From Actinomycetes bacterium (GTDB lineage Bacteria; Actinomycetota; Acidimicrobiia; Acidimicrobiales; RAAP-2), in contig JAKAZC010000030.1 in the NCBI GenBank assembly GCA_021826655.1, positions 1-14,574 on the forward strand: a stretch of 14,574 bases of DNA, given 5' to 3'. The position numbers were made by a program, and so were the translations under genes. The notes beneath the pieces were generated by a model, which saw only the letters and a program-made list of their open reading frames with translations, was not told the DNA's origin and searched no databases. Numbering within the stretch: position 1 is the first letter of the stretch; every line of letters begins with the position of its first letter. Below, in pieces: positions 3,519 through 14,574 of the stretch.

Positions 3519-4103
3519 TCAGTCCGCGACACCGTCCTGCTTCCTGGTGGCCGGCCGTCGAGGGGCTCCGCGGGCCAGCAGGTGGTCTTCTCCCTCCGCC
3601 CAGCGGGCCATGGCCCACAGGAGGTCGGAAAGGCGGTTCAGGTACAGACCGACGAGCGAGCCCTCGATCGGCGCGGACACGAGCAGTCGCTCGGCCCGAC
3701 GCACGATGGTGCGGGCCAGGTCGAGTGCCGCCGAGGTCCGGTTCGCGCCCGGAACCACGAATTCCGTCGGCATGGACACCCGGGCGATCAGATCGTCGAT
3801 CCGCTCCTCCATCGCCGACACCAGCGCGTCGGTCACCAGGGTCCTGCCCGCCACCAACTTCGATCGATGGGACGGTTCGGTCGTCACCTCGGCCATGAGG
3901 ACGTAGAGCTCGCGTTCCAACACGGTCAGGAGCTCGTCCAGCTCGGAGCCGGGGACCGCCTCGGCCCGAGCCATCCCCATTGCGGCCTGGGCCTCGTCGA
4001 CCGCGCCGGTCACCTGCATCATCGGTGCGTCCTTTCGGACGCGCCCCCCGTAGAGGAGGCCGGTCGTCCCGTCGTCGCCGGTACGGGTGTAGATCTTCAG
4101 CAC
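3519..4103 (-). CDS. pduO: Cob(I)alamin adenosyltransferase, PduO/MMAB type
   Basis: The enzyme transfers the 5'-deoxyadenosyl group of ATP to cob(I)alamin, making adenosylcobalamin for enzymes such as methylmalonyl-CoA mutase. The 194-residue length is typical. The N-terminal ATP-binding motif KIYTRTGDDGTTGLLYGGR starts at residue 3. VDE follows at 35-37, then FVVPG (115-119), the arginine-rich ATP and active-site helix ARTIVRRAERL (130-140), and LNRLSDLLW (155-163). It is therefore the PduO family and not CobA/CobO or EutT. The start is GTG 4103, preceded by GAGGA (4108-4112) at a close 4-nt spacing. The Arg-rich C-terminal tail after about residue 175 is not conserved in the family. It is divergent from metH, so the two cobalamin genes share a 115-bp control region. 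The pepA start lies 83 bp beyond its stop on the same strand. Confidence 0.93.
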   Translation of the reverse strand: MLKIYTRTGDDGTTGLLYGGRVRKDAPMMQVTGAVDEAQAAMGMARAEAVPGSELDELLTVLERELYVLMAEVTTEPSHRSKLVAGRTLVTDALVSAMEERIDDLIARVSMPTEFVVPGANRTSAALDLARTIVRRAERLLVSAPIEGSLVGLYLNRLSDLLWAMARWAEGEDHLLARGAPRRPATRKQDGVAD

Positions 4104-4218: not shown

Positions 4219-7200
4219 ATGCCTGACCACCGCACAGAATCGAGCTACCTCCGAGCCGTCGCCGAGCGTGTCGTCGTCTTCGACGGAGCCATGGGGACCA
4301 ACCTCCAACTGGCCGAGCTCACCGCCGATGACTTCGGTGGTCCCGACCTCGAAGGTTGCAACGAGCTCCTCGTCGTCACCCGACCCGACGCCGTGGAGCA
4401 GGTCCACCGGTCGTTCTACGAGGTGGGCTGCGACGTGGTCGAGACGGACACGTTCGGTGCGTTCGCCCCGGTACTCGCCGAGTACGGGCAGGGCCATCAG
4501 GTGCGCGAGCTGAATCTCGCCGCCGTCCGACTCGCCCGGAACGCGGCGGAGGAGTTCGTCACTGCGGACAGACCCCGGTGGGTGGCGGGCAGTATCGGCC
4601 CCGGCACCAAGTTCCCCACGCTCGGCCAGACCCGCTACGCGGCCCTCCGCGATGCCTATGAGGAGCAGGCGGAAGCGCTGGTAGAGGGTGGCGTCGACCT
4701 CATCCTCGTCGAGACGGTGTTCGATCTGCTCCAGGCCAAGGCCGCCATCAACGGTGCCCGTAGGGCCATGCGGCGCACCGGTGTGCGCCTCCCGATCCAG
4801 TGTCAGGTCACCATCGAGCTCACCGGGACCATGCTGCCAGGTACCGAGGTCGGTGCTGCCCTCGTCGCCCTGCAGGCCATGGACGTCGACGTGATCGGCC
4901 TCAATTGCGCCACCGGGCCGTCGGAGATGTTCGAGCCGCTTCGGCACCTCACCGGGCACGCCACCATTCCGGTTTCGTGTCTGCCCAATGCCGGGCTGCC
5001 CTCGGTGGTCGACGGCGCCATGCACTACGACCTCGAGCCCTTCCAACTTGCCGAGTACCACCGTCAGTTCGTGAGCGAGCTGGGTGTGTCCGTGATCGGT
5101 GGCTGCTGCGGCACCACACCGGCTCACCTGGCCGCGGTGGTCGAGGCGTGCGCCGGCCTGACCCCGGCCACCCGTTCCCCCGAGCGTGAGGAGGGTGCCG
5201 CGTCGATCTACACCCACGTGCCCTTCACCCAGGACAGTTCGTTCCTGGTCGTCGGCGAGCGCACCAACGCCAACGGCTCGAAGAAGTTCCGCGAAGCCAT
5301 GCTCGAGGCCGACTGGGACTCCTGCGTGGACATGGCCAAGGAGCAGGTCAAAGAGGGGTCGCAGCTCATCGACGTGTGCGTCGACTACACGGGCGCCGAC
5401 GGCATGTCCGATATGGACGAGGTCGCATCCCGCTTCGCCACCCAGTCGACCGCTCCCCTCATGGTCGACTCCACCGAGGCACCCGTGGTCGAGACCGCAC
5501 TGTCGTGGATCGGTGGCCGTGCCGTCATCAATTCGGTGAACCTCGAGGAGGGCGATGCAGTCGGTACCCGGCTCGACTCGTTCCTCACCCTGGCGAAGGA
5601 GTTCGGCGCCGCCGTGGTGTGCACGTGCATCGACGAAGAGGGACAGGCACGTACGGCCGATTGGAAGGTGCGCGCCGCCACGGCTATCCACGACATCGCC
5701 ACCGGCCGCTACGGGCTCCGTCCCGAGGACCTCCTGTTCGATCCCCTGGCGCTCCCGTTGTCGACCGGCATGGAGGAGAGCCGCCGGGACGGAATCGAGA
5801 CCATCGAGGGGATCCGCCGGATCAAGGCGGAACTGCCCGGCGTGTTCACGGTGCTCGGGCTCTCCAACGTGTCGTTCGGGCTGAACCCCGCCGCCCGCCA
5901 GGTCCTCAATTCCGTCTTCCTCCACGAATGCGTGGAAGCTGGTCTCGACGCGGCCATCGTCCATGCCTCGAAGATCCAGCCCCTGTCCAAGATCGACGAC
6001 CGGGCCCGCGAGGTCTGCCTCGACCTCATCTACGATCGGCGCGCCGAAGGGTACGACCCGTTGACCGAACTCCTGGCCCTGTTCGAGGGCGTCTCCGCGT
6101 CCTCCGCCAGCGCGGCCGAGGACCGCTCGGGCTGGACGGTCGAACGCCGTCTCGAGCACCGGATCATCGACGGTGACCGCAACGGCATCGAAGCCGATCT
6201 CGAGCAGGCGATGGCCCAGGGACTCACCCCGTTGGTCATCATCAACGAGTTCCTCCTCGCCGGCATGAAGACGGTCGGTGAGCTGTTCGCCTCCGGCGAG
6301 ATGCAGCTGCCGTTCGTCCTCGGCTCGGCCGAGACGATGAAGACGGCGGTCGCCCATCTGGAGCCCCACATGGAAAAGGCCGACCAGGGGGGCAAGGGCA
6401 CGATGGTGCTCGCCACGGTCAAGGGCGATGTCCACGACATCGGCAAGAACCTGGTCGACATCATCCTCACCAACAACGGGTACACCGTACGCAATCTCGG
6501 TATCAAGATCGGCATCAACGACATGGTGTCCGCGGTCGAGGAGTTCGGTGCCGACGCCATCGGCATGAGCGGCCTCCTGGTGAAGTCGACGTTGATCATG
6601 CGTGAGAATCTCGAGGAGCTCAACCGGCGGGAGCTGTCCCACATCCCGGTCATCCTGGGTGGCGCCGCACTGACCCGCACCTATGTGGAACGGGACCTCC
6701 GTCAGGTCTACGACGGTCGCCTGTTCTACGGAAAGGATGCATTCGAGGGTCTGCGCACCATGGACCGCCTCGTGGAGCTCGCCCGCACCGGGGACGACGA
6801 TCCCGGATTCGGGACGGCCATCGGCGGGCGCGACCTGGGACCCCGCAAGAGCGAACTGCGCAAGCAGGCTGCCGACGAGGCGCGTGCGCGTGGTGAACAG
6901 CTGCCGAGCCGATCCCCCGAAGTGGTCTCGGACAACAAGCTCTTCACACCGCCATTCGTCGGGAGCCGGGTGGCGAAGGGCATGGCCATCGACGACATCG
7001 TCGCATTCGTGAACGAGACCGCCCTGTTCCGGAACCAGTGGGGATTCCGCCCCGAACAGGGGGAGGACGACCCGGCGTTCAAGGTACGGGTACGGTCACG
7101 GCTCCGAGAGGAACTGGCCAAGGCCAAGGCCGAGCAGCTGCTCGTCCCGCAGGTGGCGTGGGGTCACTTCGCAGCCAACGCCGACGGCGACGACCTGGTC

Positions 7201-7725
7201 ATCTGGACCGACGAGTCCCGCACCGCGGAGCGGATGCGGTACGCCTTCCCCCGACAGGTCGAGGATCCGTACCTGTGCATCGCTGACTTCTTCCGGTCGA
7301 TCGACTCCGGCGACGAGGACTGGGCGAGTTTCCAGGTGGTCACGATGGGCTCCCGGGTATCGGAGGAGGCTGCCCGACTGTTCGCCGCCGACGAGTACCA
7401 GCAGTACCTCTACCTCCACGGACTCGGCGTCGAGATGGCCGAGGCACTTGCCGAGTACTGGCACCGTCGCGTCCGCGAGGAACTCGGATTCGCCGACGAG
7501 GACGGGCCGACGCTGACCGGGCTGTTCCGCCAGAAGTACCGGGGCGGCCGCTACTCGTGGGGCTACCCGGCCTGCCCGCGGCTCGAGGACAACGCGCTGG
7601 TGGTCGAGCTGTTGGGCGCGGAACGCATCGGGGTGGATGTCAGCGAGGGATTCCAACTCCATCCCGAACAGTCGACTACGGCGATCATCTGCCACCACCC
7701 CCAGGCCAAGTACTTCGTCGCCTGA
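4219..7725 (+). CDS. metH: Methionine synthase, cobalamin-dependent
   Basis: MetH moves a methyl group from 5-methyltetrahydrofolate through methylcobalamin to homocysteine, making methionine. All modules are present in 1168 residues. The homocysteine/zinc domain (about 12-311) has zinc ligands Cys230 in LNCATGP and Cys296/Cys297 in GGCCGTTP. The pterin domain (about 338-625) begins FLVVGERTNANGSKKF. The four-helix cap spans about 636-720. The cobalamin domain (about 726-860) has GDVHDIGKN, whose His739 is the lower axial ligand. The AdoMet-dependent reactivation domain (about 905-1168) has GRYSWGYPACP. It is slightly shorter than E. coli MetH (about 1227 residues), like other actinobacterial forms. 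The start is ATG 4219, since the first conserved motif (VFDGAMGTN) begins at residue 20. Upstream and divergent is a cobalamin adenosyltransferase. That enzyme makes a different B12 cofactor, so the link is shared B12 metabolism and not a shared step. Confidence 0.97.
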   Translation: MPDHRTESSYLRAVAERVVVFDGAMGTNLQLAELTADDFGGPDLEGCNELLVVTRPDAVEQVHRSFYEVGCDVVETDTFGAFAPVLAEYGQGHQVRELNLAAVRLARNAAEEFVTADRPRWVAGSIGPGTKFPTLGQTRYAALRDAYEEQAEALVEGGVDLILVETVFDLLQAKAAINGARRAMRRTGVRLPIQCQVTIELTGTMLPGTEVGAALVALQAMDVDVIGLNCATGPSEMFEPLRHLTGHATIPVSCLPNAGLPSVVDGAMHYDLEPFQLAEYHRQFVSELGVSVIGGCCGTTPAHLAAVVEACAGLTPATRSPEREEGAASIYTHVPFTQDSSFLVVGERTNANGSKKFREAMLEADWDSCVDMAKEQVKEGSQLIDVCVDYTGADGMSDMDEVASRFATQSTAPLMVDSTEAPVVETALSWIGGRAVINSVNLEEGDAVGTRLDSFLTLAKEFGAAVVCTCIDEEGQARTADWKVRAATAIHDIATGRYGLRPEDLLFDPLALPLSTGMEESRRDGIETIEGIRRIKAELPGVFTVLGLSNVSFGLNPAARQVLNSVFLHECVEAGLDAAIVHASKIQPLSKIDDRAREVCLDLIYDRRAEGYDPLTELLALFEGVSASSASAAEDRSGWTVERRLEHRIIDGDRNGIEADLEQAMAQGLTPLVIINEFLLAGMKTVGELFASGEMQLPFVLGSAETMKTAVAHLEPHMEKADQGGKGTMVLATVKGDVHDIGKNLVDIILTNNGYTVRNLGIKIGINDMVSAVEEFGADAIGMSGLLVKSTLIMRENLEELNRRELSHIPVILGGAALTRTYVERDLRQVYDGRLFYGKDAFEGLRTMDRLVELARTGDDDPGFGTAIGGRDLGPRKSELRKQAADEARARGEQLPSRSPEVVSDNKLFTPPFVGSRVAKGMAIDDIVAFVNETALFRNQWGFRPEQGEDDPAFKVRVRSRLREELAKAKAEQLLVPQVAWGHFAANADGDDLVIWTDESRTAERMRYAFPRQVEDPYLCIADFFRSIDSGDEDWASFQVVTMGSRVSEEAARLFAADEYQQYLYLHGLGVEMAEALAEYWHRRVREELGFADEDGPTLTGLFRQKYRGGRYSWGYPACPRLEDNALVVELLGAERIGVDVSEGFQLHPEQSTTAIICHHPQAKYFVA

Positions 7726-9181: not shown

Positions 9182-10309
9182 TCAGCCGTCGACCACTACC
9201 AGCCGGTGGTCGGCCGTGTTGAGCGACTCCGGCTCCCCGTCCGGCCCTACCACCACGATGTCCTCGAGCCGCATGCCGAAACGACCAGGATGGTAGATGC
9301 CGGGCTCGACCGAGAACGCATGCCCGGGAACCAGCACCTCGTCGTTGCCCACCACCAGATATGGGTCTTCGTGCTCCTCGATGCCGATTCCGTGCCCGGT
9401 CCGGTGAACGAACAAGTCGCCGTGACCCGCCTCTTCGATGACCGTCCGGGCCGCCCGGTCGACCGAGGCCGCCGTCACCCCGGCACGGGCGGTGCCCACA
9501 GCGGTCTGCTGCGCCCGGAGCAGGACCTCATAGCATTCGGCGACCTCGTCGGAGGGGGCGCCGGTGACCACCGTCCGGGTGATGTCCGAGCAGTAACCGG
9601 GTCCCCCGTCCAACGAGAGGGACCCACCGAAGTCGCACACGACCGTCTCGCCCCGGGCGATCATCCGCCCCCCGGGTTCGTGGTGGGGACTGGCGGCGTT
9701 GGGCCCACTGCCGACGATGGCGAAGTTCACGGCGCGGTGTCCCTCGGACACGAGCAGCGCACCGAGGCGGGCGGACACCTCTGCCTCGGTCCGGCCCACC
9801 AACGGGATCCCGCCCGACTGCAGCACGGCCGCGACCCGGTCGGCGGCCGCTGCCGCGGCCCGGAGCGCGGCAACCTCGTCGGCATCCTTCACGGCCCGGA
9901 TGGGCGAGGTCACCCGAGACGCATCGATCCAGTCGCTGTCGGGAAGTCGTCGTTGCAATGCCAGTACCGTGGTGGCCCAGGCGCGGTCGGACACGGCGAG
10001 CCGGGCCGAGCCGTGCCGCCGGAGGAGGTCGACGACGAGGTCGAGTGGGTCCTCGGCATCCGACCAGGGGCGGATCTCGACGAGTCCTTCGGGATCGGGC
10101 ACCCGGGGCGCCTCCAGACCGGGTACGACCAGGACCGCGTCCCCCGTCGCCGGAAGGACCAGGACCGTCAGCCGCTCGAGCGGCATCGCACGGTAGCCGG
10201 TCAGCCAGGGGAGGTCCGCACCATGGGAGAGCAGCATCGCGTCCACTCCGAGCGACCCCATTCGCTCCCGGACCCGCGCGATCCGGTCGGACCGGGCACC
10301 CGCGCTCAT
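9182..10309 (-). CDS. M24 family metallopeptidase, Xaa-Pro aminopeptidase-like
   Basis: The predicted role is cleavage of peptides next to proline by a two-metal cytosolic peptidase. The 375 residues split into an N-terminal creatinase-type domain (about 1-135, with SDRIARVRERM and DLPWLTGYRA) and a pita-bread catalytic domain. All five metal ligands are visible: Asp226 (CDFGG), Asp242 (YCSDITRT), His306 (HRTGHGIG), Glu335 (VEPGIY) and Glu349 (MRLEDIV). The first two ligands are 16 residues apart, where about 11 is usual, because of a small SLSLDGGP-like insertion. ATG 10309 is the start: it overlaps the lipBA stop in an ATGA arrangement, and the longer in-frame extension to 10477 would lie inside the LipA coding region and is Arg/Pro-rich. 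No strong Shine-Dalgarno is seen, so translation is probably coupled to lipBA. Aminopeptidase P versus prolidase cannot be settled from the sequence. Confidence 0.92.
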   Translation of the reverse strand: MSAGARSDRIARVRERMGSLGVDAMLLSHGADLPWLTGYRAMPLERLTVLVLPATGDAVLVVPGLEAPRVPDPEGLVEIRPWSDAEDPLDLVVDLLRRHGSARLAVSDRAWATTVLALQRRLPDSDWIDASRVTSPIRAVKDADEVAALRAAAAAADRVAAVLQSGGIPLVGRTEAEVSARLGALLVSEGHRAVNFAIVGSGPNAASPHHEPGGRMIARGETVVCDFGGSLSLDGGPGYCSDITRTVVTGAPSDEVAECYEVLLRAQQTAVGTARAGVTAASVDRAARTVIEEAGHGDLFVHRTGHGIGIEEHEDPYLVVGNDEVLVPGHAFSVEPGIYHPGRFGMRLEDIVVVGPDGEPESLNTADHRLVVVDG

Positions 10310-12063
10310 GTCCGTACCGATGTGGGGAGGACCGTCACCGGGGCACCGCCGCCAGTGGCGCCGGCCGCCTCTCGGGCGTGGTAGCTCGATCGGGTCAGCG
10401 GTGAGGACTGCACATGGGCGAACCCGAGGGACTCGCCCACCCGGCGGAGGTCGGCGAACTCGTCGGGTCGCCACCACCGGGCGACGGGCAGGTGTCTCGT
10501 GCTCGGGCGCAGGTACTGACCCAGGGTGACGATGTCGACACCGACTGCCCGGAGGTCGGCCAACGTGGCGACCACCTCGTCCTCGCGCTCTCCCATCCCG
10601 AGGATGATGCCCGACTTGGTCGTGAGCCCGGCGGCGGCCGAGCGGGCGAGGACGGTCAGGCTCCGGGCGTAGCCGGCCGACGGACGGACCGCCCGCTGCA
10701 GCCGTGGCACCGTCTCGATGTTGTGGTTGAGCACGTCCGGGCGGGCGTCGAGGATGGTCTGCAACGACATCCGGTCGCCCTTGACGTCAGAGATCAGGAC
10801 TTCGACGGCGGTGCCCGGGCTCGTCGCCCGCACCGCCCGGATCGTCCGGGCGAACGCACCGGCACCGCCGTCCGGAAGGTCGTCCCGGGCCACGCACGTG
10901 ATCACCGCGTGGGCCAGGCCCATTCGTGAGATCGCATCGGCGACCCGGTCGGGCTCCGTGACGTCGAGTGGCAACGGGTGGCGGGTATCCACCTGGCAGA
11001 AGGCACAGGCCCGGGTGCAACGCGATCCGTTGATCATGAAGGTGGCGGTGCCGTCGGACCAGCACTCGAAGATGTTCGGGCAACCGGCCTCTTCGCACAC
11101 GGTGACGAGGTCGAGATCACGGATGCCGCGCTGCAGCCCCAGGAATTCGTCGGCCATCGAGGCCTGGACCCGCAGCCACTCGGGCTTGCGGGCCGAGATC
11201 GGGAGCCCAGCACGGGGGTCGACCCCCGACCGGACCAACCGCCGCTCGAGCGCCGTTCCGCTGTCGACTGGCGTGCTGCCGGTGCTGCCGGTGCTGCCGG
11301 TGCTGCCGGTGCTGCCGGTGCTGCCGGTGCTGCCGGTGCTGCCGGTGGCCAGGAACGATACGGGAACGGCACCGACCGGGCCGTTCGAGCCGGCGCCGTC
11401 GGTCACCGCCGTGCAGTCGTCCAGGTCACCCCAGACCTCCTGGGCCGAGTCCAGGACGGCTCGGACGGCGTCGGCCACCGTGACCGGGTACCCCTCGGCA
11501 GCCAGTGAGGTGACCGGTCGGTCGGCGATACCGCACGGCACGATGTGCCCGAACATCGACAGGTCCGTAGAGACGTTGAGACCGAACCCGTGAGTGGTCC
11601 GCCCTCGCGCCGTCCGCACCCCGACGGCGGCGATCTTGCGGGGTCCGGCGTGCCCGTCCCCCGTGGACGCCGGGTCGAACCACACGCCGGGGAAGCCGTC
11701 CATCCGCCCCACCCGGGAGGGCGGAACACCGAGCCGTGTCAACGCACCGATCACCACGCGCTCCACATCCTGGACGTGTCCGGGTCCCCGATGGGGTCCG
11801 GCACCCACCGAACGGATGGGGTAGCCGACCAGTTGGCCCGGGCCGTGGTAGGTGACATCCCCGCCCCGGTCGACCGTCACCAGCTCCGCACCCACCGTGG
11901 CCGGATCGACGAGTACGTGGTCCGGGTCGGCATGTCTCCCGAGGGTGTACACGGGAGCATGCTCGAGCAGCAGGAGGTAGTCGTCGGCCGAGCGTTCGGC
12001 GATACCGCGTTGGAGGTCCCATGCCTCCGTGTAGGCGACACGGCCGAGCCACCGTGCCCTCAT
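10306..12063 (-). CDS. lipB-lipA: LipB-LipA fusion: octanoyltransferase joined to lipoyl synthase
   Basis: One uninterrupted 585-residue frame holds both enzymes that build protein-bound lipoate. Residues 1-220 are LipB, which moves octanoate from acyl carrier protein to the target lysine. It shows RGGDVTYHGPGQLVGYPI (66-83), the catalytic pair Lys143 (PRKIAAVGVR) and Cys177 (VPCGI), and GFGLNV (159-164). Residues 221-275 are a linker containing eight Gly-Ser-Thr units (241-264). Residues 276-585 are LipA, the radical SAM enzyme that inserts two sulfurs. It has the auxiliary-cluster cysteines 323, 328 and 334, the radical SAM cluster CTRACAFC (349, 353, 356), and the RSSY motif (558-561). Both catalytic sets are complete, so both activities are expected. 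The start is ATG 12063, and no clear ribosome-binding site precedes it. It lies 62 bp after the E2 gene, its likely substrate, and its stop overlaps the M24 start. I found no convincing internal start for a separate LipA. Confidence 0.93.
   Translation of the reverse strand: MRARWLGRVAYTEAWDLQRGIAERSADDYLLLLEHAPVYTLGRHADPDHVLVDPATVGAELVTVDRGGDVTYHGPGQLVGYPIRSVGAGPHRGPGHVQDVERVVIGALTRLGVPPSRVGRMDGFPGVWFDPASTGDGHAGPRKIAAVGVRTARGRTTHGFGLNVSTDLSMFGHIVPCGIADRPVTSLAAEGYPVTVADAVRAVLDSAQEVWGDLDDCTAVTDGAGSNGPVGAVPVSFLATGSTGSTGSTGSTGSTGSTGSTGSTPVDSGTALERRLVRSGVDPRAGLPISARKPEWLRVQASMADEFLGLQRGIRDLDLVTVCEEAGCPNIFECWSDGTATFMINGSRCTRACAFCQVDTRHPLPLDVTEPDRVADAISRMGLAHAVITCVARDDLPDGGAGAFARTIRAVRATSPGTAVEVLISDVKGDRMSLQTILDARPDVLNHNIETVPRLQRAVRPSAGYARSLTVLARSAAAGLTTKSGIILGMGEREDEVVATLADLRAVGVDIVTLGQYLRPSTRHLPVARWWRPDEFADLRRVGESLGFAHVQSSPLTRSSYHAREAAGATGGGAPVTVLPTSVRT
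11272..11343. repeat. 9-bp tandem repeat encoding the (Gly-Ser-Thr)8 LipB-LipA linker
   Basis: On the plus strand GGTGCTGCC occurs seven times without error at 11281-11343. An eighth copy at 11272-11280 has C for G in its first base. On the coding minus strand each unit reads GGC AGC ACC (Gly-Ser-Thr); the variant ends ACG and still encodes Thr. The unit is a multiple of three, so gain or loss of copies changes only linker length. Identical synonymous codons across copies point to recent slippage or unequal exchange, not conserved protein sequence. Confidence 0.97.
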
Positions 12064-12125: not shown

Positions 12126-13532
12126 CTAGAGCTCGCCGGCCCAGTCGCGGTCGTCCAGGATGGTCGACAGCCGGGACAGGAAACGTGCCACGTAGGCGCC
12201 GTCGACGGCGCGATGATCGAAGTTCATTGCGACCAGCCCTATCGAGTGGATACCGATCGTCTCCGTCCCGTCGGGCAGTTCGACGACGACCGGCTTCCGG
12301 GACACGCCGTCCGTCGACAGGATCGCCACCTGGGGCTGATTGATGATCGCCCCGGTGATCAGCGTGCCGAACGGGCCGGCATTGGTGATCGAGAACGTCC
12401 CATCGCTGATGTCGTCGAGGCTCAGCCGCTTGGTGCGGGCACGGTCGGCGACGTCACGGATCCGACGGGCCATGCCCCGAAGGTTCAGCTCCTCCGCCCG
12501 GTGCACCACCGGGACGATGAGCCCCTCGTTGTCCAGGTCTACGGCGATGCCCAGGTTGATGTCGCGATGGACGACCAGGGCGTCGTCGCCGACGGAGGCG
12601 TTCAGGTGAGGGAACTCGGCCAGGGCCTCGACCGACGCCCGGGCGACGAAGGGAAGGTAGGTCAAGGTGAACCCCTCCTCCTCGCGGAAGCGCCCACCGT
12701 GGAGCCGGCGAACCTGCTCCACCCGCTCGTAGTCGATCTCCTTCACCATCAACGTATGAGCGGAGGTGGCCTTCGACCGGACCATGTGCTCGGCGGTCCG
12801 GCGTCGGATGTTGGTGAACGGGACGATCTCGTCCCGGTCCGTCGAGGCCGGTGCGGCGACCGGTGCCAGTGCACCGGGAGGCACGGGCGTCCGGGCGGAG
12901 TGGATGCTCGGGACCTCCGAGGGGACCGTGCCCCGCTCGATGATCGATTCCACGTCGGCCCGGGTGATCCGTCCGCCGAGACCGCTACCGGGGATCGATG
13001 CGGGATCGAGTCCATGGTCGCTGAGCAGGCGGCGCACCACCGGGGACAGGACCCGCGTCTGGTCGACCGCACCGGGAGGTTCCGCGGCTGCGGGCGCGGC
13101 CGTCGGAGGGACGACGGCTGCGGCTTCGGGTCGATCCGGGGTCACGGCGCCCGCCGGCTGGTCGGACAACGGAGGCAGCGGTGCGGTCGGACCGGGCGGG
13201 GTCGGCGTCGGTGGGATCGCCGTGGCGACAGGGGCCGGGTCCGGGGACCGGGGCTGGGGCTGGGCGGCTGGGTCCGCGGTCGGTCCGGCCGCCGATCCGG
13301 GTGCGGCGATCACGGCGAGGGCGACACCGACGTCGACCGTGTCGCCCTCCTGGACGAGGATGGCGGTCAGCACCCCTTCGGCCGGAGACGGGACCTCGGA
13401 GTCGACCTTGTCGGTCGACACCTCGAAGAGCGGCTCGTCCCGGGCGACCGTGTCACCGACGGCCTTGAACCACTTGGTGATGGTTCCTTCGGTCACGGTC
13501 TCGCCGAGCTGCGGCATCGTCACGTCAGGCAA
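12126..13532 (-). CDS. sucB: 2-oxoacid dehydrogenase E2, dihydrolipoamide acyltransferase
   Basis: This is the core acyltransferase of a pyruvate, 2-oxoglutarate or branched-chain 2-oxoacid dehydrogenase complex. Its domains in 468 residues are as follows. One lipoyl domain (1-77) has the modified lysine Lys42 in STDKVDSEV. A long Pro/Ala linker (about 78-160) follows. The E1/E3-binding domain (161-200) has SPVVRRLLSDHGLD and GLGGRITRADV. A second linker leads to the catalytic domain (about 234-468) with FDHRAVDG, whose His440 and Asp444 are the active-site pair. The start is TTG 13532: AAGGGGG lies 7 nt upstream and the protein then begins PDVTMPQLGETVTEG, as lipoyl domains do. It overlaps the lpd stop by 8 nt, which implies coupled translation. 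Sequence alone does not separate the E2p, E2o and E2b types, so the symbol is provisional. The LipB-LipA fusion that should lipoylate it is encoded next. Confidence 0.93.
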   Translation of the reverse strand: MPDVTMPQLGETVTEGTITKWFKAVGDTVARDEPLFEVSTDKVDSEVPSPAEGVLTAILVQEGDTVDVGVALAVIAAPGSAAGPTADPAAQPQPRSPDPAPVATAIPPTPTPPGPTAPLPPLSDQPAGAVTPDRPEAAAVVPPTAAPAAAEPPGAVDQTRVLSPVVRRLLSDHGLDPASIPGSGLGGRITRADVESIIERGTVPSEVPSIHSARTPVPPGALAPVAAPASTDRDEIVPFTNIRRRTAEHMVRSKATSAHTLMVKEIDYERVEQVRRLHGGRFREEEGFTLTYLPFVARASVEALAEFPHLNASVGDDALVVHRDINLGIAVDLDNEGLIVPVVHRAEELNLRGMARRIRDVADRARTKRLSLDDISDGTFSITNAGPFGTLITGAIINQPQVAILSTDGVSRKPVVVELPDGTETIGIHSIGLVAMNFDHRAVDGAYVARFLSRLSTILDDRDWAGEL

Positions 13533-14574
13533 CGTGGAGCCCCCTTCCGGTCAAGGCAAGCACGGTCTCGCCGAAGGTCTCCGACAGAGACGGATGCGGC
13601 TGGATGAATTGCGCGACCTCGTCGGCGGTGGCCTCCCAATTGACGGCCAGGTAGCCGGCGCCCAACTGCTCGGTCACCCATGGGCCGACCATGTGGACCC
13701 CCAGGATGCGTCCCGTCGTGCCGTCCGGACGCCGCTCGGCCACGAGCTTGACCATTCCCTCGGTGTCCCCGATGATGCGGGCCCGGCTGTTGCCGCCGAA
13801 CGGGTCCTTCTTGACCACGACGTCGAGGCCGGCTGCCCGGGCCGCGGCCTCGGTCATCCCGGCGAAGGCGACCTCGGGGTGGCAGTAGATCGCCCAGGGG
13901 ACCCGCGCGTAGTCGACCGGCGGCGCCGGCTCTCCCAGGATCGACTTGATCACGACGATGGCCTCGGCGAACGCCACGTGCGCGAGCTGCGGGGTCCCGG
14001 CGACCACGTCGCCCACCGCCCAGATGCCGGGGGCCGATGTCCGCATGACGGCATCGGCGACCACGAAGCCGCGCTCGTCGATGGTCACCCCGGCTCCGTC
14101 GGTCACCAGCCCCTCCGTCCGGGGACGGCGACCGACCGACACCACCACGGCGTCCACGGCCAGTTCCTCACCGTCACCGAATGCGACGACGGTGCCCCCC
14201 TCTGCCGCCGGCGTGTGTCCGTGGAGGGTGACGCCGGCCTTGACGTCGATCCCCCGCTTCTTGAACGAGCGGGCGACGGTACGGACCACATCGTCGTCAC
14301 AGCCGTTGAGGATGGTCGGCAGTGCCTCGAACACGGTCACCGTCGAGCCGAGGTCGGCGAACATCGAGGCGAACTCGCAGCCGATGGCACCGCCACCGAC
14401 GACCGCCACCGAACCGGGAAGGGACTCGAGCGCAAGGACCTCGTCCGAGGTCAGCACGACCGTACCGTCGATGTCGAAGCCCGGGATCGTGCGGGGAACC
14501 GAGCCGGCAGCCAGGACGATGTCGTCACCGGTCACCTCGGTGGTGGTCCCGTCGTTGCCGGCGACGCGATCGGA
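13525..14574 (-). CDS. lpdA: Dihydrolipoamide dehydrogenase (E3), N-terminal part outside window
   Basis: E3 is the FAD enzyme that reoxidises the dihydrolipoyl arm of E2 using NAD+. The frame is open to the right edge and has 349 residues in the window. By comparison with the usual 460-470 residues, about 115 N-terminal residues, including the FAD GxGxxG loop and the redox disulfide, lie beyond the window. Visible elements are DIVLAAGSVPR, the NAD-binding loop VVGGGAIGCEFAS, VSVGRRPRTEG, the second FAD motif GIWAVGDVV, and the C-terminal dimer domain with YCHPEVAFAGMTE and the active-site pair HPSLSE. The TGA stop lies inside the start of the E2 gene. Glutathione-reductase-like relatives are unlikely given HPSLSETF and the E2 neighbour. 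The ATG/GTG-type start near 14535 is internal, because conserved sequence continues upstream of it. Confidence 0.95.
   Translation of the reverse strand, partial: SDRVAGNDGTTTEVTGDDIVLAAGSVPRTIPGFDIDGTVVLTSDEVLALESLPGSVAVVGGGAIGCEFASMFADLGSTVTVFEALPTILNGCDDDVVRTVARSFKKRGIDVKAGVTLHGHTPAAEGGTVVAFGDGEELAVDAVVVSVGRRPRTEGLVTDGAGVTIDERGFVVADAVMRTSAPGIWAVGDVVAGTPQLAHVAFAEAIVVIKSILGEPAPPVDYARVPWAIYCHPEVAFAGMTEAAARAAGLDVVVKKDPFGGNSRARIIGDTEGMVKLVAERRPDGTTGRILGVHMVGPWVTEQLGAGYLAVNWEATADEVAQFIQPHPSLSETFGETVLALTGRGLHVA
13540..13548 (-). promoter_or_regulatory. Ribosome-binding site supporting the TTG start of E2
   Basis: On the minus strand GGAAGGGGG lies within the last codons of lpd, 7 nt before TTG 13532. 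The later in-frame GTG (13523) and ATG (13517) would be 16 and 22 nt away, so the TTG is the better start. Confidence 0.55.

What the first reader, a model, noticed from the sequence alone, without database searches (positions are those of the whole stretch)
10306..12063. Octanoyltransferase and lipoyl synthase fused in one polypeptide
A single frame carries a complete LipB (Lys143/Cys177 pair) followed by a complete LipA (auxiliary-cluster cysteines, radical SAM CxxxCxxC and RSSY). These enzymes act one after the other on the same lysine of E2. In known actinobacteria they are usually separate adjacent genes. A fusion would fix them at 1:1 and could let LipA act on the octanoylated domain before LipB releases it. 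I cannot say whether this fusion has been described elsewhere.
Basis: partly seen in the sequence, partly recalled or inferred. Interest (0 to 1): 0.8.

Follow-up and report, generated by a model that had tools for sequence, protein, structure and literature searches.

The report
Fused LipB-LipA enzyme, class-wide
One protein carries both enzymes that build the lipoic acid cofactor; the joined form is standard in one class of actinobacteria, has arisen in other groups too, and its two halves may dock against each other.

Summary
The fusion is real. On the MINUS strand (12063 to 10306) one 585-aa, 61.4-kDa frame holds complete LipB, a partly disordered linker with a Gly-Ser-Thr repeat, and complete LipA. 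It is no frameshift: of 149 genomes sampled from class Acidimicrobiia, 142 carry LipA; 141 of these have the single-frame fusion and one is cut by a contig end. All 206 aligned fusions keep the LipB Lys/Cys pair and six LipA cysteines. It is usually the genome's only LipB and LipA, downstream of Lpd and E2. Trees fit one origin in this class. In class Actinomycetes 0 of 90 examined loci are fused.

The architecture is not new: LipB-LipA fusions occur in Chloroflexota and other groups, two listed ones bearing the UniRef name "Multifunctional fusion protein". One common origin of all sampled fusions is rejected.

Less expected: AlphaFold2 gives pTM 0.89 for the window protein but 0.58 for a Chloroflexota fusion, and covariation marks two LipB-LipA patches, suggesting docked halves rather than a loose string. 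This is prediction, and the control on separately encoded pairs was underpowered. Nine searches of an open-access library found no paper describing the fusion.

The parts
10306..12063 (-). lipBA: fused octanoyltransferase-lipoyl synthase, 585 aa, ATG start, TGA stop
11416..12063 (-). LipB domain, residues 1-216
11635..11637 (-). LipB Lys143, 206 of 206
11533..11535 (-). LipB Cys177, 206 of 206
11287..11397 (-). linker core, residues 223-259, pLDDT under 50
11273..11347 (-). 9-bp tandem repeat, 8.3 copies, 100% matches, encodes (Gly-Ser-Thr)n; absent from the 8 close homologues whose sequence was read
10342..11256 (-). LipA domain, residues 270-574
11062..11097 (-). auxiliary-cluster cysteines C323, C328, C334
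   Evidence: 206 of 206
10996..11019 (-). radical SAM cysteines C349, C353, C356
   Evidence: 206 of 206
10381..10392 (-). RSSY motif, residues 558-561
   Evidence: both Ser in 203 of 206; the other 3 rows are gaps
11992..12033 (-). LipB helix 11-24, predicted contact patch 1 (covariation block 10-18)
10633..10671 (-). LipA helix 465-477, partner of patch 1 (block 462-470)
11407..11433 (-). LipB 211-219, predicted contact patch 2
10546..10584 (-). LipA helix 494-506, partner of patch 2
12126..13532 (-). E2 acyltransferase with one N-terminal lipoyl domain: the likely substrate, directly upstream
   Evidence: Pfam PF00364 at 3-75, PF00198 at 234-461
13525..14535 (-). dihydrolipoamide dehydrogenase-like gene (listed frame; the Pfam match starts at profile position 99, so its 5' part probably lies beyond the window end)
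9182..10309 (-). M24-family metallopeptidase; its ATG (10309-10307) overlaps the lipBA TGA (10308-10306)

Best explanation
A bifunctional enzyme that carries out both steps of de novo lipoyl-cofactor assembly. The LipB half takes octanoate from acyl carrier protein onto Cys177 (Lys143 as partner) and passes it to the lipoyl lysine of E2. The LipA half, by radical SAM chemistry, then puts sulfur from its auxiliary cluster at C6 and C8 of the tethered octanoyl chain. Shown here: one frame, both complete active sites, conservation of both across 206 fusions, the fusion as usual sole copy, and the E2 neighbour. Inferred from known family chemistry: the reactions. Predicted only (my odds about 0.5): the halves dock through LipB helix 11-24 and LipB residues 211-219 against LipA helices 465-477 and 494-506, holding the two sites near one another while the lipoyl domain moves between them. 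Hand-over without release is possible but has no evidence.
For: Families over cut-off. Both active sites in 206 of 206. Fusion in 141 of 142 LipA-bearing class genomes; one LipB place per genome except G061, with two, and G091, whose single LipB matches in two pieces. Of 51 fused loci with at least 1.5 kb upstream, 47 have Lpd and E2 just upstream and 4 have Lpd without E2. Fused sequences form one side of a branch in the LipA tree (80 fused and 31 separate rows; 86/88) and the LipB quick tree (80 and 15; 89). Docking: pTM 0.89, mean pLDDT 89.8, against pTM 0.58 for a Chloroflexota fusion. In VIA-align all 22 lipoate-ligase-type rows run on from LipB to model residues 471-479 (20 rows) or 509 (2), i.e. 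into LipA, whereas in the Chloroflexota model the corresponding 22 end at 234-237, within or just after LipB. Covariation over 326 fusions: block LipB 10-18 x LipA 462-470 at 5.9 and LipB 211-219 x LipA 492-506 at 5.4, against a maximum over all blocks of 2.1 to 4.2 in 20 shuffles of the LipA halves; both in the top 8 of about 6,800 blocks in 12 of 12 parameter settings.
Against: No biochemistry. Docking is prediction, and the model and the covariation draw on overlapping sequences. Covariation is shallow (effective number about 150): inter-domain pairs are 170 of the top 510, fewer than their share of all pairs (49%), so the inter-domain signal is sparse. In one search, on another alignment, patch 1 was again first but patch 2 was not among the 12 top blocks printed. 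In split halves patch 1 ranked 1, 2, 7, 26, 42 and 568 and patch 2 ranked 4, 8, 8, 29, 45 and 223. Subsamples of 95 fusions lost the signal into noise (patch 1 ranks 15 to 1546), so the separate-gene control (95 pairs, rank 3370 of 6360; patch 2 not scored) is underpowered. The linker varies from 28 to 175 residues between window positions 207 and 290, which does not itself ask for rigid docking.
Confidence: 0.87

Rival explanations
1. Beads on a string: an operon pair merged into one frame. The gain is equal dosage and co-expression, and the halves work independently on a flexible tether.
For: Same gene order as the separate genes of class Actinomycetes (81 of 81 loci with both genes are LipB then LipA). 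Linker of 28-175 aa, with a replication-slippage-type repeat in the window and pLDDT under 50 at 223-259. The Chloroflexota fusion has pTM 0.58, as expected of unfixed domains.
Against: pTM 0.89 and two covarying inter-domain patches in the Acidimicrobiia set.
Confidence: 0.42
2. Two proteins in practice: LipA is also made from an internal start, or the product is cleaved in the linker.
For: In-frame start codons exist in the linker of all 206 genes (GTG or TTG included); at window residue 297 the codon is ATG in 116 of 206.
Against: Start codons with a Shine-Dalgarno-like match are no commoner in the linker (31 of 206) than in the LipB body (52) or LipA body (39); residue 297 lies inside LipA, after the conserved K-P-x-W-L-R segment.
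Confidence: 0.05
3. An artefact of assembly or frameshift, or one half is decayed.
For: One MAG (L066) does have a broken frame in the LipB half.
Against: 140 of 142 class loci and 65 of 80 GTDB-contig loci are one open frame; catalytic residues in 206 of 206.
Confidence: 0.01

Closest known systems
LipB-LipA fusions in other lineages (Desulfonema limicola P0158 and Thermoleophilum album P0175, both 'Multifunctional fusion protein' in UniRef; Chloroflexota P0196, Acidobacteriota P0181, Rhodanobacteraceae P0130 and others)
   Same: Same two domains in the same order (9 of 10 proteins tested carry LipB then LipA)
   Different: The Acidimicrobiia LipA halves form their own branch (SH-aLRT 94), and one clade of all sampled fusions is rejected (p-AU 1.8e-7). 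The linker tends to be longer: LipB Cys to first LipA Cys median 127 aa (111 proteins) against 98 (50 proteins). The one other fusion folded has pTM 0.58
NCBIfam NF053790 LplA_LipA_fuse, bifunctional lipoate-protein ligase/lipoyl synthase
   Same: An attaching enzyme fused ahead of LipA
   Different: N-half is ATP-dependent LplA, not LipB; the window scores 349.8 of the 800 bits required and only over its LipA half
Separate adjacent lipB and lipA of class Actinomycetes
   Same: Same enzymes, same order, 81 of 90 loci
   Different: Two genes; 0 of 90 fused
M. tuberculosis LipB (1w66) and LipA (5exi, 5exj, 5exk)
   Different: Solved as separate proteins

Membership tests
LipB octanoyltransferase | LipB profile over curated cut-off | tested here: met
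   TIGR00214 124.1 (83.55), NF010925 170.9 (155); three narrower LipB models fall below their cut-offs
LipB octanoyltransferase | Cys/Lys catalytic pair | tested here: met
   K143 and C177 in 206 of 206
LipB octanoyltransferase | octanoyl-ACP dependent transfer to a lipoyl domain | not testable with these tools
   needs an assay
LipA lipoyl synthase | LipA profile over curated cut-off | tested here: met
   TIGR00510 342.2 (310.25)
LipA lipoyl synthase | CX4CX5C auxiliary cluster, CX3CX2C radical SAM motif, RSSY serine | tested here: met
   206 of 206; Ser in 203 of 206, 3 gaps
LipA lipoyl synthase | two-step sulfur insertion | not testable with these tools
   needs an assay
LplA_LipA_fuse (NF053790) | score over 800 bits, LplA N-half | tested here: not met
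   349.8 bits over residues 290-565 only; N-half is LipB
LipB-LipA fusions of other phyla, as one homologous family | common origin of the fusion | tested here: not met
   single fused clade rejected, p-AU 1.8e-7 on a quick tree of 119 rows; separate rows are mostly actinobacterial

The most novel reading that the evidence does not exclude
In Acidimicrobiia the fusion evolved into a fixed two-enzyme assembly: LipA's outer barrel helices (465-477, 494-506) took the place on LipB that a helix of the lipoate ligase itself takes in LplA-type enzymes. The two active sites are then held at a set spacing, so that one lipoyl domain is octanoylated and sulfurated in a single encounter.
Probability: 0.3. 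Interest if true: 0.68.

Novelty: new variant of a known kind. Interest (0 to 1): 0.45.

Why it matters
Whether octanoylation and sulfur insertion are physically coupled is hard to test with separate LipB and LipA. A natural, class-fixed fusion with a predicted interface gives one polypeptide in which patches can be mutated and the two-step reaction followed. Repeated fusions in the same order (LipB then LipA in 91 of 91 listed proteins that had both motifs's list) argue that closeness or equal dosage is worth having. A practical point: the named hits are called only lipoic acid synthetase or lipoyl synthase, so the LipB half can be missed in genome surveys.

Tried and rejected
Own-genome searches: no genome is held for this window. 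Rejected: frameshift, decayed half, enriched internal starts. Phylum survey: 246 genomes, list cut short; 12 non-class rows with LipA frames of 482 aa or more were fetched and 0 of 12 were fused, the upstream frame having no LipB in it. It therefore missed the Thermoleophilum-type fusion seen. The open_frame column joins neighbouring matches across a stop when both halves are searched (G011), so it was not used for counts. Seven class genomes have neither LipB nor LipA (G065, G068, G096, G100, G125, G137, G151); 6 of 7 still have an E2-type domain, so incomplete bins or scavenging are both possible. A second PF21948 match, mostly weak, appears in most reference genomes searched and was not identified; G026 has five matches. 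Covariation on 180 fusions of other lineages did not show the patches among its top blocks. The separate-gene covariation control was underpowered. Coordinates of the models are not given by the tool, so contacts were inferred from alignments to solved structures, whose ranges give only first and last residue. The promoter/terminator scan gave one weak plus-strand promoter-like match and no terminator. A 2024 review of lipoic acid attachment (PMC11332335, met in a reference list) is not held, so it could describe such fusions unseen by me.

Full report
What is there. The frame at 12063..10306 on the minus strand encodes 585 aa. LipB and LipA profiles score above their curated cut-offs on the two halves. 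The gene starts 62 nt after the stop of an E2 acyltransferase gene with one N-terminal lipoyl domain, which itself follows a dihydrolipoamide dehydrogenase-like gene; the lipBA stop overlaps the ATG of an M24 peptidase gene.

It is a class-wide trait. A protein search returned 7,995 homologues (capped); the 120 listed are all 542-622 aa with LplA-B_cat and Radical_SAM domains. The best 80 loci from GTDB contigs include 65 single-frame fusions, one frame-broken MAG locus, and 14 separate gene pairs from Mycobacterium, Nocardia, Streptomyces, Cellulomonas and others. A few fused loci carry odd record titles (Acidobacteria for L028; Bifidobacterium breve for L053, L059 and L060), yet L059 and L060 fall inside the fused clade. 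Of 149 genomes drawn from the class of L034, 142 have LipB and the same 142 have LipA; a 143rd LipA-profile match, G065, is weak and I did not count it. Fetched DNA shows 140 of 142 loci fused. The exceptions are L082, a second, separate copy in G061, which also has the fusion, and L208, cut by a contig start. With G001 (locus L034, fused) this makes 141 of 142 genomes. Of 108 class Actinomycetes genomes, 105 have LipB; I examined 90 loci: 81 separate in LipB-LipA order, 9 without LipA in the stretch, 0 fused.

Both halves are kept. In 206 aligned fusions (window, 65 and 140 loci) Lys143, Cys177 and six LipA cysteines are invariant; the RSSY serines are present in 203 and the other 3 rows are gaps. 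The stretch between window residues 207 and 290 spans 28 to 175 aa, median 57. The (Gly-Ser-Thr) repeat is absent from the eight close homologues read.

Origin. In a LipA tree of 111 rows the 80 sampled fusions lie on one side of a branch (86/88) against 31 separate sequences; the LipB quick tree agrees (89). A search with E. coli LipA restricted to long proteins found 91 of 120 listed proteins with LipB and LipA motifs in that order. NCBIfam confirms LipB in 9 of 10 tested; the tenth is LplA-LipA. A Chloroflexota query listed mostly fusions: 89 of its 106 new proteins. With these added, Acidimicrobiia fusions remain one branch (94), while all fusions together need 15 label changes, or 8 when seven short, possibly truncated Chloroflexota rows are dropped; a single fused clade is rejected (p-AU 1.8e-7). 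Separate rows from other phyla are few (E. coli only), so the number of origins is not fixed.

Docking. AlphaFold2 on 80 fusions gave mean pLDDT 89.8 and pTM 0.89, disorder only at 223-259 and 576-585. A 77-sequence Chloroflexota alignment gave pLDDT 89.6 but pTM 0.58. Two free domains of this size would be expected nearer the second value (my judgement). In the window model the 22 lipoate-ligase-type chains listed align to LipB and then run on into LipA residues (end 471-479 in 20, 509 in 2); in the Chloroflexota model the 22 end at 234-237. Mean-field covariation on 326 fusions independently puts LipB 10-18 x LipA 462-470 first among inter-domain blocks and LipB 211-219 x LipA 492-506 next, above 20 shuffles that include within-clade ones and over 12 settings. 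The weak points are listed in the Against line: sparse signal overall, patch 2 not among the top blocks printed for another alignment, variable split-half ranks, absence among the top blocks of other lineages, and an underpowered separate-gene control.

Literature. Nine searches gave no paper describing a LipB-LipA fusion. I saw passages, not whole texts, of PMC10332631, PMC3917532, PMC7468506, PMC3904984, PMC12246082, PMC4398509 and PMC9307952. The passages shown from PMC10332631 discuss fusions of LplA with LplB, not of LipB with LipA. Subscription journals are mostly outside the library. The reaction chemistry of LipB and LipA is established knowledge, partly restated in the passages.

Noticed in passing
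11273-11347: Perfect 9-bp tandem repeat (8.3 copies) in coding sequence, encoding (Gly-Ser-Thr)n; likely to vary in length between strains.
   Followed up: partly
L082 (G061:C83): A second, separately encoded lipB/lipA pair with overlapping frames and a long branch, in a genome that also has the fusion (L139): contaminant contig or transfer.
   Followed up: partly
G065, G068, G096, G100, G125, G137, G151: Class genomes without LipB and LipA; 6 of 7 still have an E2-type domain. Missing bins or lipoate scavenging.
   Followed up: partly
L235-L238: Some other actinobacterial genomes have LipA upstream of LipB on the same strand, the reverse of the usual order.
   Followed up: no
3519-4103 (-) and 4219-7725 (+): A PduO-like reading frame and a MetH-like reading frame, divergent, near lipBA; homologues of both lie downstream of the fusion in many related loci. 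Names from recall of the sequence, not from a family search.
   Followed up: partly
L023, L042, L049, L055: Fused loci with Lpd directly upstream and no E2 between.
   Followed up: no
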